Part shown: in pieces, positions 3,530 through 6,800 of the stretch
How the letters are laid out: every line of letters starts with the position of its first letter
Numbering within the stretch: position 1 is the stretch's first letter
From: Streptomyces sp. M41(2017)
GTDB taxonomy: Bacteria; Actinomycetota; Actinomycetes; Streptomycetales; Streptomycetaceae
NCBI RefSeq assembly: GCF_002078175.1
Contig: NZ_MWFK01000001.1
Location: 3,596,001 to 3,660,000, forward strand
Reading direction: 5' to 3'
DNA: 64,000 bases
Position numbers and translations under genes: made by a program
The notes under the pieces: generated by a model
Databases searched by the model: none
What the model was told of the DNA's origin: nothing
The model's input: only the letters and a program-made list of their open reading frames with translations

Positions 3530-3592
3530 CCAGTTCCTAAACGTCAGGGCCTGTGATGCCCGCGTGAAACATTGGCCGACAGAGGGGCAAGT

Positions 3593-3626
3593 GGCCGCGC
3601 TTTACCAAAACTTGGTAAACGCGGCC
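3593..3626 (+). terminator. Long hairpin after the thioredoxin-TPR gene
   Basis: Left arm GGCCGCGCTTTACCAA and right arm TTGGTAAACGCGGCC pair over 15 bp with one bulged C and a 3-nt loop, starting 64 bp after the stop. It may terminate the thioredoxin transcript. Its AT-rich inner half (TTTACCAA/TTGGTAAA) also resembles a protein-binding palindrome. Confidence 0.5.
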
Positions 3627-3630
3627 GCTG

Positions 3631-3643
3631 TTACTCCGAGTAA
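3631..3643. promoter_or_regulatory. Inverted repeat TTACT-CCG-AGTAA
   Basis: The 5-bp arms match those of the repeat at 3758-3775; only spacer length differs (3 against 4 nt). The two sites are 127 bp apart upstream of the DUF6230 operon, suggesting one regulator binding twice. The binding protein is not identifiable by eye. Confidence 0.45.
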
Positions 3644-3757
3644 GTCGAGGGCGTTGAACTGTCTGGTTCCGTCCGCCAATCAACCACTCTGTGACCCCCT
3701 TCGAGGGCACCCTGAGTCGCTGACCGACACCGGCCGGTCGTCCTTCGGTTATCCCGC

Positions 3758-3775
3758 CGTTACTAGCGAGTAACG
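3758..3775. promoter_or_regulatory. Inverted repeat CGTTACT-AGCG-AGTAACG
   Basis: Perfect 7-bp arms around a 4-nt spacer, the second and better copy of the TTACT/AGTAA motif. GTTAC half-sites occur in MtrA- and GlnR-type sites, but those are mostly direct repeats, so that assignment is only a guess. Confidence 0.5.
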
Positions 3776-4147
3776 AACCCCCTTGTGCGGGCGGCGAGAA
3801 TGGACCACGATCGGCGACGCTCGGTCCATTCCCGTACCCCGCCCGCCAGTCGGGGCAGCGGATTCCCTGGGTCCCCACCGAGTAGAGCCGAAGGCAGTGC
3901 TGTCGGCTCTTGGGCAGGGGGGTCTCCGCCGTCCGGTGGAGCCTGTCCAGCAGGTTGTGCGTGATGTGTGTCAGGCGCGACCAGTGGTTGTCGCTCGGGG
4001 GTGATCGCCGGTGATTCGGGTGCAGTCGCACCTCCGGGTACAGGCGCTCTCCTTCCCGAGGACGTAGCACTTCTCCCATCCCTGCCCGGCTGAGCCGCCG
4101 AAAGGGGCAGTCAGGGCCAGGAGATGTACGTCCGAGAAGGAGGAAAT

Positions 4148-4780
4148 ATGGAGTCCCAGGTGCGTGGCGGGACCAGATGGAAGCGGTTCGCGGTCGTGAT
4201 GGTGCCTTCGGTGGCCGCCACGGCAGCGATAGGTGTCGCCCTCGCGCAGGGCGCCCTCGCCGCGTCGTTCAGCGTTTCCGGTCAGTCGTTCAAGGTGTCT
4301 GCTGACCGGCTCGACGGTACGGGCTTCTCGCAGTACGGAGCCATCGACTCGGGTTACACCCTCGACGGCAACAAGACGGCTCACCCCGTCGCGGTCTCGG
4401 CGTTCAAGAACGCCAAGATCACCAACATGTGCCAGTCCGTCGTCACCCCGGACATCCCGCTGCTCGGTTCCGTCAGCCTCGTGCTGAAGGCCGGCGGCGG
4501 TGACACGCCGGTCGAGGCGGACAACCTGTACATCGACGTCGAGGACCTCCAGGCCAACGCGACGTTCCGCGGCATCGACATCGGTGTTGCCGCCAAGGAC
4601 GCCAGCAAGGGCCCGGGGCTCAAGAGCGGCGAGACGGCCAACCCGTACGGGTTCGCCCAGCAGGCCGACTCGGCCACCCTGACGGACGTGAAGCAGACGG
4701 CGTGGGCCACCACGGCGGGCACGTTCAAGCTCAGCGGCCTGAAGATGTCGGTCGCCAAGGGCGTCAAGGAGTGCTACTAG
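4148..4780 (+). CDS. DUF6230 family exported protein, function unknown
   Basis: A 210-residue protein with a basic N-terminus (to about residue 14), one hydrophobic segment (about 15-31) ending ALA-A, and a soluble part rich in beta-type alternation. This fits export by signal peptide or anchoring by an uncleaved one. The soluble part has two cysteines, in NMCQS and at the extreme C-terminus (KECY), which could pair outside the cell. The ATG at 4148 was chosen for the strong AAGGAGG six bases upstream. The family has been labelled cholesterol esterase in some Streptomyces genomes, but I see no serine-hydrolase motif (GxSxG). It is the first gene of a conserved trio with DUF6114 and a secreted low-complexity protein, preceded by a long leader with putative operators. 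I do not know its function. Confidence 0.8.
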   Translation: MESQVRGGTRWKRFAVVMVPSVAATAAIGVALAQGALAASFSVSGQSFKVSADRLDGTGFSQYGAIDSGYTLDGNKTAHPVAVSAFKNAKITNMCQSVVTPDIPLLGSVSLVLKAGGGDTPVEADNLYIDVEDLQANATFRGIDIGVAAKDASKGPGLKSGETANPYGFAQQADSATLTDVKQTAWATTAGTFKLSGLKMSVAKGVKECY

Positions 4781-4788
4781 GCACGCCT

Positions 4789-4827
4789 GGGGCGGGCGAC
4801 AGGGGCCTCGGCCGCTTCGCCCGCCCC
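4789..4827 (+). terminator. Intercistronic hairpin between DUF6230 and DUF6114 genes
   Basis: GGGGCGGGCG pairs with CGCCCGCCCC (10 bp, 19-nt loop) nine bases after the DUF6230 stop. It may terminate part of the transcripts or protect an mRNA 3' end, giving unequal expression of the first gene against the next two. Confidence 0.5.
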
Positions 4828-4897
4828 GCTCCGCACGCATAGGCGGAGCGAACATGTGTACTTCTCACAGCAAAGCCGTTCCAGGGAGCTGTTTTCC

Positions 4898-5476
4898 ATG
4901 AGCGCCGAGACTCCTGCCGCGCCCGGCCAGAACGACGAGCACTACCTCCAGGTGTTCCGGCGGAACTTCCGTACATGGAGGGGCGACCGCCCGTTCTGGG
5001 CCGGCCTGTTCATCGTGCTCGGCGGTGTCCCCATCGCGTACTTCCCGTACGCGAAGCTTCAGCTCGGGCACCTGACGCTGGCGATGTCCACCACCGCGGG
5101 CGCCGGTTCCCTCATCATCGGCGTGCTCCTCGTGGTGCTCGGGATCAGTCTCTGGTTCCAGAAGCACGTCCGGACGTTCGCCGGAGTCGCGGCGATCCTC
5201 CTCGCCCTGGTGTCCATCCCGGTGTCCAACCTGGGCGGCTTCCTGGTCGGCTTCCTCTTCGCCCTGATCGGCGGCGCCATGGCCGTCTCCTGGGTTCCGG
5301 GTGAACCCGACGAGGCGTACGCCGCGCCGGCCTCCTACGCCGAGCGGGACGAGCCGCAGGGCGTGGCGGCCGAGCCGGCCGGACCCGCCGCGACCGCGAA
5401 CGCTGTGGACGACCCGAACGATCTGTCAGGAACGAGCCCGAGCAACGGGGCGAACGGGAGGCACAGTGCCGGCTGA
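4898..5476 (+). CDS. DUF6114 integral membrane protein
   Basis: A 192-residue membrane protein with four predicted transmembrane segments at about residues 33-50, 66-85, 92-108 and 112-130. A short N-terminal cytoplasmic part (RRNFRTWRGDRPFW just before helix 1) and a roughly 60-residue hydrophilic, Ala/Glu/Pro-rich tail flank them. The start at 4898 follows AGGGAG (4883-4888). The stop overlaps the start of the next gene by 11 bp, implying translational coupling. It could anchor or assemble the exported products of the flanking genes, but no biochemical role is established that I know of. Confidence 0.82.
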   Translation: MSAETPAAPGQNDEHYLQVFRRNFRTWRGDRPFWAGLFIVLGGVPIAYFPYAKLQLGHLTLAMSTTAGAGSLIIGVLLVVLGISLWFQKHVRTFAGVAAILLALVSIPVSNLGGFLVGFLFALIGGAMAVSWVPGEPDEAYAAPASYAERDEPQGVAAEPAGPAATANAVDDPNDLSGTSPSNGANGRHSAG

Positions 5477-6800
5477 CAAGGTGACCCACGGGACTGAGGT
5501 GGACGAGTCCCGTGTGAGAACCGGGCCGCGCCACGCGGCCCCCAGGAAGCCGCTGTTCACCAGGTTCCACGTGCCCGCCGGCAAGGCGATAGCCATAGCC
5601 GCGATGCCGACCGCGGTCCTCATGGGAATGGGCCTCACGCCGACACTCGCCCAGGCGGACGACCACTCCACGGCCAAGAGCCTGACGGCCGACGAGTACC
5701 AGGCGTGCGTCGAGGCCGTCACCGGCGCCGACGACAAGAAGGACGCGTCGGAATCGGCGTCGCCGACCCCCTCGGCCGGCGCGAGCGAGTCGTCCGGCAC
5801 GGCCACACCGACCCCCTCCGCGTCCTCCGACGCGCAGGACTCCACGGACTCGGGCAAGACCTCTTCGCCGGATTCAGGTTCCGACGACAAGGCCGAACCC
5901 ACCCCCTCCGCGTCGTCCTCCGCACCGAGCACGTCGGACAAGTCGGCGGACAGCGCCGCCACTCCGGCCCCCACGGCGTCCAAGACCAAGAACCCGCTCG
6001 ACCCCCTGGGGATCGGCGACGCCATCAAGGACATCCTGACGCCCGACGAGAAGGAGAGCGCCACCCCTGCTCCCTCCGCGTCGGCCTCCGCGGGCGACGA
6101 CAAGGGTGACGGGGCCGGCACGACCGCCTCGCCCGACGACAAGAGCTCCTCCGGCACCGTGAAGGACACGACCGACAAGGTCACCGACACGGTCAAGGAC
6201 ACCCTCAAGGACACCACCGACACGGCCTCCGAGGCGGCGAAGGACACCACCGACGCCGTCAAGAAGGCCGCCGAGGACGCCGGGGTGACGCCGAGTCCCT
6301 CCGCGAGCTCCACGACGGACCCCAAGGACTGTCCGGTCGCCACCGACGACGAGGGCGGCGTCGACAACCCGGTCACCCTGCCCGACGACCCGTGGTACCT
6401 CAACGCCAGCTCCCTGCTCCTCAAGGGCGCCGACTACCAGGGCGTCGTCAAGGTGAGGACCGCCGACGGCACCGTCAAGAAGGTCCTCAAGTACGTCATC
6501 TCCGACGGCACCGACATCGGGGACCTGCACCAGACGGTGGACGACAAGCAGGCCGGCAAGACCTACCACGTGCAGGCCGCCAAGGGTTCGACGTCCACCA
6601 TCCGCGACGGCAAGACGATCATGTACACGGAGAGCATCTCCGGGAACCTGCTCGGTCTGATCCCGATCACGTTCGACCCGGACAACCCTCCGCCGCTGAA
6701 CATCCCGCTGATCTACTTCACCAAGGTGAAGGTCGTCCAGGCGGGCCAGTTCGGCGGCACCCTGACCATCCCCGGACTGCACCAGTACACGACCGGCTGA
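5466..6800 (+). CDS. Secreted low-complexity protein of the DUF6230/DUF6114 locus
   Basis: A 444-residue protein starting at the GTG at 5466, preceded by GGGAGG and overlapping the DUF6114 gene by 11 bp. A long basic N-terminus leads into a hydrophobic signal segment (about residues 38-61) ending AQA-DD. Residues 65-290 are an Asp/Ser/Thr/Pro/Lys low-complexity stalk with repeated TPTPSAS-like and KDTTDTVKDT-like units, probably extended and surface exposed. Residues 300-444 form a compact, probably beta-rich domain ending GTLTIPGLHQYTTG. The layout suggests a wall-spanning stalk presenting a C-terminal domain. No catalytic motif is recognised. A bidirectional terminator follows. Confidence 0.8.
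   Translation: MPADKVTHGTEVDESRVRTGPRHAAPRKPLFTRFHVPAGKAIAIAAMPTAVLMGMGLTPTLAQADDHSTAKSLTADEYQACVEAVTGADDKKDASESASPTPSAGASESSGTATPTPSASSDAQDSTDSGKTSSPDSGSDDKAEPTPSASSSAPSTSDKSADSAATPAPTASKTKNPLDPLGIGDAIKDILTPDEKESATPAPSASASAGDDKGDGAGTTASPDDKSSSGTVKDTTDKVTDTVKDTLKDTTDTASEAAKDTTDAVKKAAEDAGVTPSPSASSTTDPKDCPVATDDEGGVDNPVTLPDDPWYLNASSLLLKGADYQGVVKVRTADGTVKKVLKYVISDGTDIGDLHQTVDDKQAGKTYHVQAAKGSTSTIRDGKTIMYTESISGNLLGLIPITFDPDNPPPLNIPLIYFTKVKVVQAGQFGGTLTIPGLHQYTTG

What the first reader, a model, noticed from the sequence alone, without database searches (positions are those of the whole stretch)
3530..6800. Uncharacterised DUF6230 / DUF6114 / secreted low-complexity protein system with a long regulated leader
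Three adjacent genes encode an exported DUF6230 protein with two cysteines, a four-helix DUF6114 membrane protein and a secreted protein with a 225-residue disordered stalk and a compact C-terminal domain. The last two overlap by 11 bp. They follow a 618-bp leader with paired TTACT/AGTAA operators and several hairpins. This looks like a dedicated surface or lipid-handling module (membrane anchor plus two exported partners) whose function is not described as far as I know. Of everything here, it is my best candidate for a new system.
Basis: partly seen in the sequence, partly recalled or inferred. Interest (0 to 1): 0.65.

Follow-up and report, generated by a model that had tools for sequence, protein, structure and literature searches.

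The report
Lipid-linked export module with RNA switch
Three always-linked Streptomyces genes, for two exported proteins and a membrane protein, sit behind two repressor-type DNA sites of a fatty-acid-breakdown kind and a conserved RNA leader that appears able to hide or expose the ribosome-binding site; the locus is known by name, but its function and this control layout have not been worked out.

Summary
DUF6230 (4148-4780), DUF6114 (4898-5476) and a secreted stalk protein (5466-6800) follow a 618-bp leader. The trio is syntenic in 80/80 Streptomyces loci. Across Actinomycetota, 24 of 25 DUF6230 genes are followed by DUF6114, so the pair is a real module.

The locus is not undescribed. It corresponds to SCO5420-5422; SCO5420 is called "cholesterol esterase" and rose about 37-fold on Tween. 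The leader holds Rfam's che1 RNA (92 bits).

New here:
(1) The TTACT-AGTAA palindromes are conserved operators, exactly 129 bp apart, with invariant arms and variable spacers. The same class recurs at fabG/thiolase and acyl-CoA-dehydrogenase/TetR promoters, pointing to fatty-acid control.
(2) che1 is only part of a larger RNA (about 3868-4147). In 74 of 77 leaders the best fold pairs the Shine-Dalgarno with a conserved anti-Shine-Dalgarno; a competing fold uses the same strand and frees it. This predicts a translational switch with unknown input.

DUF6230 lacks GxSxG here and has no family-wide conserved histidine, so a classical esterase is doubtful. Best reading: a fatty-acid-inducible exported lipid-handling module. 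The protein function is inferred.

The parts
3631..3643 (.). Operator 1, TTACT-CCG-AGTAA (3-nt spacer)
   Evidence: Arms conserved, spacer variable in orthologs
3760..3773 (.). Operator 2, TTACT-AGCG-AGTAA (4-nt spacer), 129 bp from operator 1
   Evidence: Same spacing in every ortholog in which both sites are found
3868..4147 (+). Conserved structured leader RNA, longer than Rfam che1
   Evidence: Conservation to the start codon; z -4.0 against shuffles; covariation
3911..4010 (+). Rfam che1 RNA (RF02935)
   Evidence: 92.3 bits against gathering 54.1
3870..3883 (+). P1 5' strand; pairs with the che1 core strand 3993-4006 in the closed fold
   Evidence: Predicted pairs; invariant, so covariation is neutral
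3988..4009 (+). che1 core strand, shared by the two competing folds
   Evidence: Pairs with P1 5' strand or with 4043-4066
4048..4055 (+). Anti-Shine-Dalgarno UCUCCUUC
   Evidence: Pairs with 4136-4143 in the minimum-energy fold of 74 of 77 leaders
4136..4143 (+). Shine-Dalgarno GAAGGAGG of the DUF6230 gene
   Evidence: Sequence; predicted almost fully paired
4148..4780 (+). DUF6230 gene, exported beta-rich protein, 210 aa, SCO5420 equivalent
   Evidence: PF19741 E 1.1e-60; synteny
4898..5476 (+). DUF6114 gene, multi-helix membrane protein, 192 aa
   Evidence: PF19609 E 2.5e-35; hydropathy
5466..6800 (+). Secreted stalk protein, 444 aa; conserved C-terminal domain coded at 6330-6797
   Evidence: Overlap kept in 79/80 loci; all-beta end domain, pLDDT 88

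Best explanation
This is a fatty-acid-inducible, exported lipid-handling module with two stacked control layers. Shown by sequence: the DUF6230-DUF6114 pair is an old conserved unit; in Streptomyces it is extended by an overlapping gene for a stalk protein; two conserved palindromic operators, of a class also found at fatty-acid metabolism promoters, precede it; and the leader is a conserved structured RNA. Predicted: the leader adopts two mutually exclusive folds that hide or expose the Shine-Dalgarno. Inferred: a TetR-type regulator keeps the promoter off until fatty acid or acyl-CoA rises; an unknown signal then favours the open fold; the exported beta-rich DUF6230 protein and the stalk protein's end domain work at the outer face of the membrane with DUF6114, binding, extracting or presenting acyl esters or fatty acids.
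For: Trio syntenic in 80/80 loci; overlap kept in 79/80; DUF6230-DUF6114 pairing in 24/25 phylum hits; a natural DUF6114-stalk-domain fusion. Operators conserved with fixed 129-bp spacing, almost unique in the genome, same class at fabG/thiolase and at acyl-CoA dehydrogenase/TetR in 14 genomes. SCO5420 up almost 37-fold on Tween (PMC7494193). RNA: che1 match, covariation 11 pairs against shuffle maximum 8, SD/anti-SD fold in 74 of 77 leaders.
Against: No lipid binding or transport was tested; no fold relative was found. The Tween report quotes SCO5420 only and assumes an esterase. The regulator is not identified; one genome, fragmented, keeps the operators without a close ortholog of the acyl-CoA-dehydrogenase-linked TetR. 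P1 and the SD/anti-SD helix are invariant, so they lack covariation support, and the open fold costs about 8 kcal/mol.
Confidence: 0.5

Rival explanations
1. DUF6230 is a true secreted ester hydrolase, the 'novel family of cholesterol esterases' reported for actinomycetes, and the other two genes help export or anchor it. It releases fatty acids that feed beta-oxidation.
For: Literature name and almost 37-fold induction on Tween (PMC7494193); Streptomyces cholesterol esterases reported in 2006 and 2007, with aggregation and detergent activation (references cited in PMC3514274; PMC4098958).
Against: No GxSxG in the window protein, none in most relatives, no family-wide conserved His, and one streptomycete paralog has none in the stretch examined; no hydrolase match by Pfam, NCBIfam or PDB sequence. 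The original papers are not held, so identity of the purified enzyme with DUF6230 is unverified.
Confidence: 0.25
2. A cell-envelope protection or surface module: it shields the membrane against free fatty acids and detergents, or forms part of the hyphal surface, rather than handling nutrients.
For: Exported stalked protein plus membrane partner; Tween is a detergent as well as a carbon source; near-universal in Streptomycetaceae.
Against: Operator class is shared with fatty-acid metabolism promoters; no cell-wall sorting or peptidoglycan-binding family was found.
Confidence: 0.15
3. The leader RNA is mainly a trans-acting small RNA (as Rfam types che1) rather than a cis switch on DUF6230 translation.
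For: Rfam type 'Gene; sRNA'.
Against: Conservation runs past the Rfam boundary to the start codon, the anti-SD pairs with this gene's own SD, and che1 was listed as a cis element of the downstream gene in S. lividans with RNA-seq support (PMC8079986).
Confidence: 0.1

Closest known systems
S. coelicolor SCO5420-SCO5422 ('cholesterol esterase' locus three genes before pyk2, SCO5423)
   Same: Same gene order before pyruvate kinase; induced on Tween
   Different: Function of the trio, the operator pair and the extended leader are not described in the papers found
Rfam che1 RNA (RF02935)
   Same: The core 3911-4010 is a clear member
   Different: Conserved RNA here is larger (about 3868-4147), with P1, an anti-SD and the SD itself; predicted cis translational switch rather than sRNA
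Pfam DUF6230 (PF19741) and DUF6114 (PF19609)
   Same: Both genes are strong members
   Different: Pfam gives no function; here they are shown to be a linked pair across Actinomycetota
Fatty-acid TetR regulons of actinobacteria (FasR-like, TetR_C_32)
   Same: TTAC...GTAA operators at acyl-CoA dehydrogenase/TetR and fabG/thiolase promoters
   Different: The regulator of this operon is unproven; the linked TetR scores 84.8 bits against FasR's cut-off of 330

Membership tests
DUF6230 (PF19741) | Score over the curated cut-off | tested here: met
   204.5 bits against 27.5
DUF6114 (PF19609) | Score over the curated cut-off | tested here: met
   121.7 bits against 27.9
che1 RNA (RF02935) | Covariance model score over gathering threshold | tested here: met
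   92.3 against 54.1 bits, full model length
Actinomycete cholesterol esterase family (2007 report) | Sequence identity with the purified enzyme | not testable with these tools
   Original paper not held
Classical serine esterase/lipase | GxSxG nucleophile motif and conserved His | tested here: not met
   No GxSxG in the window protein and no His conserved across subfamilies
Riboswitch-like translational control element | Conserved structured 5' leader with covariation | tested here: met
   11 double-change pairs against shuffle maximum 8; z -4.0
Riboswitch-like translational control element | Mutually exclusive folds controlling the SD | tested here: inconclusive
   Closed fold in 74/77; alternative pairing in 48/77 when the SD is held open; energy model only
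Riboswitch-like translational control element | Ligand binding by the RNA | not testable with these tools
   Needs in-line probing or reporter assays
TetR fatty-acid regulon | Operator motif shared with the regulator's own promoter and fatty-acid genes | tested here: met
   Relaxed motif conserved upstream of the TetR_C_32 regulator in 14 genomes, and strict motif at fabG/thiolase
TetR fatty-acid regulon | Regulator binds these sites and is released by acyl-CoA or fatty acid | not testable with these tools
   Needs EMSA or ChIP

The most novel reading that the evidence does not exclude
The full che1 leader (about 280 nt) is an orphan translational riboswitch, possibly sensing a lipid-linked metabolite, that gates a previously unrecognised actinobacterial machine (DUF6230-DUF6114 plus a stalk protein) for moving lipids or acyl esters at the cell surface.
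Probability: 0.2. Interest if true: 0.8.

Novelty: new variant of a known kind. Interest (0 to 1): 0.5.

Why it matters
DUF6230 genes are near-universal in Streptomycetaceae, and at least some are read as cholesterol esterases although the family shows no classical catalytic motif, so proteome and transcriptome papers may misinterpret them. The che1 RNA has been listed with unknown function. A defined anti-SD, P1 competition and operator pair make both questions directly testable in S. coelicolor or S. lividans. A lipid-responsive riboswitch, or a lipid-handling surface module in a single-membrane bacterium, would be of wide interest.

Tried and rejected
Chance adjacency of the genes: rejected by 80/80 synteny and 24/25 pairing. 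Homology of DUF6230 with the stalk protein's end domain: no support in a profile comparison. Fold relatives: Foldseek and VIA-align showed nothing convincing for either model, and the DUF6230 model (pLDDT 62) is too poor to interpret. PDB sequence search: nothing for DUF6230, chance-level hits only for the end domain. Viral copies: none found. Plasmid copies: 5 distant ones, no annotation to use. A second apparent DUF6114 fusion (L092) was not supported against the profile. The neighbouring TetR gene at 1667-2362 as regulator: possible, not tested; its C-terminal family (TetR_C_11) differs from that of the acyl-CoA-dehydrogenase-linked TetR. Promoter position: the consensus scan found none. 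The 180-aa ORF antisense to the leader (3537-4079) was not treated as a gene, because conservation there follows operators and RNA structure. One search was a pattern search that only served to place the window.

Full report
WHAT IS THERE. The window lies in a Streptomyces-type chromosome (one search places it in a 9.02 Mb genome; its closest named relatives are Streptomyces). From 3530 to 6800 there are a 618-bp leader, a DUF6230 gene (ATG 4148, Shine-Dalgarno GAAGGAGG), a DUF6114 gene (4898-5476) and a third gene (5466-6800). The third protein has an N-terminal hydrophobic export segment, Cys81, a 223-residue Ser/Ala/Asp/Thr-rich stalk, Cys289 and a conserved 156-residue end domain, modelled by AlphaFold2 as all-beta with mean pLDDT 88. 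DUF6230 is also modelled as beta-rich, but poorly (pLDDT 62). Neither model matched a solved fold convincingly.

IS IT A MODULE. Yes. In 80 of 80 named loci, matches to the upstream TetR and thioredoxin genes and to DUF6114 and the third gene accompany DUF6230; pyruvate kinase is found in 77, and two of the other three loci are short. The DUF6230 count of 76 in that script is an artefact of a frame error in my query; the loci were themselves fetched by DUF6230. The third gene starts 8 nt before the DUF6114 stop codon in 79 of 80, which suggests translational coupling. DUF6230 is in 247 of 249 Streptomycetaceae genomes, often in two or more copies, but in only 16 of 246 genomes sampled across the phylum, all of which also have DUF6114. 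Of 25 DUF6230 hits in that sample, 24 have DUF6114 directly downstream, and two genomes with only a DUF6114 hit carry a diverged DUF6230-like gene just upstream of it. The pair is therefore the wider unit. In one relative (L069) DUF6114 runs on into a hydrophobic segment, a stalk and a domain resembling the third protein's end domain (hhalign E 4.6e-5, probability 69%). This supports a physical link, moderately. A second apparent fusion (L092) was not supported.

WHAT IS ALREADY KNOWN. By position relative to pyk2 (SCO5423 in PMC7494193), the trio corresponds to SCO5420-5422. That paper calls SCO5420 a cholesterol esterase and reports an increase of almost 37-fold on Tween. Two reports on Streptomyces cholesterol esterases (2006, 2007) are cited in PMC3514274 and the second in PMC4098958. 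The originals are not held, so it is unverified that the purified enzyme is DUF6230. The leader contains Rfam che1 (RF02935; 92.3 bits). In S. lividans che1 was listed as a cis-regulatory element of the downstream gene, 'cholesterol metabolism', with RNA-seq support (PMC8079986); in S. clavuligerus it is called a common Streptomyces RNA structure of unknown function (PMC11678152).

DNA-LEVEL CONTROL. Perfect TTACT-N3/4-AGTAA occurs three times in the genome: twice in this leader and once between a fabG-type reductase and a thiolase gene. Across orthologs the arms are nearly invariant while the spacer varies; the first site has a 3-nt spacer and the second a 4-nt spacer, and the start-to-start distance is 129 bp wherever both are found. 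This is the signature of two operators. The relaxed motif TTACY-N3/4-RGTAA has 14 sites in the genome against 2 for the reversed control, so a few of the 14 are probably chance. They include a divergent acyl-CoA dehydrogenase/TetR promoter, a 4Fe-4S membrane protein that resembles the beta-oxidation electron acceptor of mycobacteria (my reading; only Fer4 domains were tested), a CocE/NonD hydrolase, a sphingomyelinase and an F420-dependent oxidoreductase. The fabG and oxidoreductase sites recur in other species. All 14 Streptomyces genomes with a close ortholog of the acyl-CoA-dehydrogenase-linked TetR have a motif within about 205 bp upstream of it. A fatty-acid-responsive TetR regulator is the natural reading. 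Which TetR binds is open: more distant relatives show a similar TTACC...AAGTA element upstream, and one fragmented genome (G494) keeps the operators without a close ortholog.

RNA-LEVEL CONTROL. Conservation continues from 3868 to the start codon, well beyond the Rfam boundaries. The window leader folds 4.0 standard deviations better than shuffles. In an alignment of 103 distinct sequences of the 5' domain, 11 pairs show compensatory double changes (shuffles mean 5.4, maximum 8), mainly in the hairpin at 3912-3948. Relatedness of the sequences inflates such counts, so this is support rather than proof. In the minimum-energy fold P1 (3870-3883 with 3993-4006) encloses three hairpins including che1's two, and an anti-Shine-Dalgarno (4048-4055) pairs with the Shine-Dalgarno (4136-4143); this holds in 74 of 77 leaders. 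In the window leader and most others tested the Shine-Dalgarno core is almost fully paired, against a mean unpaired probability of 0.43 in shuffled leaders. If it is forced open, the che1 core strand (3988-4009) leaves P1 and pairs with the anti-SD strand (4043-4066); this happens in 48 of 77, and three leaders prefer that pairing outright. The mean cost is about 8 kcal/mol, so a ligand, a protein or cotranscriptional folding would be needed. P1 and the SD/anti-SD helix hardly vary, so covariation cannot confirm them. The switch is a prediction.

FUNCTION. DUF6230 lacks GxSxG in the window protein and in most relatives, and no histidine is conserved across subfamilies; what is shared is short strand-like motifs and, in most members, two cysteines, possibly a disulfide. 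A classical serine esterase is therefore unlikely as the family-wide activity, though an unusual hydrolase is not excluded. Together with the Tween response and the operator class, the best-supported reading is an exported lipid-handling module (binding, extraction or presentation of acyl esters or fatty acids) that works with DUF6114. The protein activity is inference; the linkage, the operators and the conserved leader are shown by sequence.

VERDICT. A real, well-conserved module, not undescribed, but with function and control unexplained. The strongest new points are the fatty-acid-type operator pair and the finding that che1 is part of a larger leader with a predicted switch over the ribosome-binding site.

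Noticed in passing
window 3590-3629: Long near-perfect inverted repeat AGTGGCCGCGCTTTACCAA-AAC-TTGGTAAACGCGGCCGCT just after the thioredoxin gene, strongly conserved in orthologs; either the trx terminator hairpin or a further operator.
   Followed up: no
window 3787-3842: Very highly conserved hairpin (GAATGGACC...GGTCCATTC) between operator 2 and the che1 leader, of unknown role.
   Followed up: no
L015, L197-L210: Divergent acyl-CoA dehydrogenase/TetR_C_32 promoter often with two closely spaced TTAC...GTA elements, conserved across 14 Streptomyces genomes; a candidate autoregulated fatty-acid regulator.
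   Followed up: partly
L034: A second DUF6230 subfamily in Streptomycetaceae has a MerR-type regulator upstream and neither the operator pair nor che1.
   Followed up: partly
L052, L054, L055: In distant actinobacteria the DUF6230-DUF6114 pair lies next to other TetR-type regulators.
   Followed up: partly
L053, L076: One genome (G309) has a tandem array of three DUF6230 and two DUF6114 genes.
   Followed up: no
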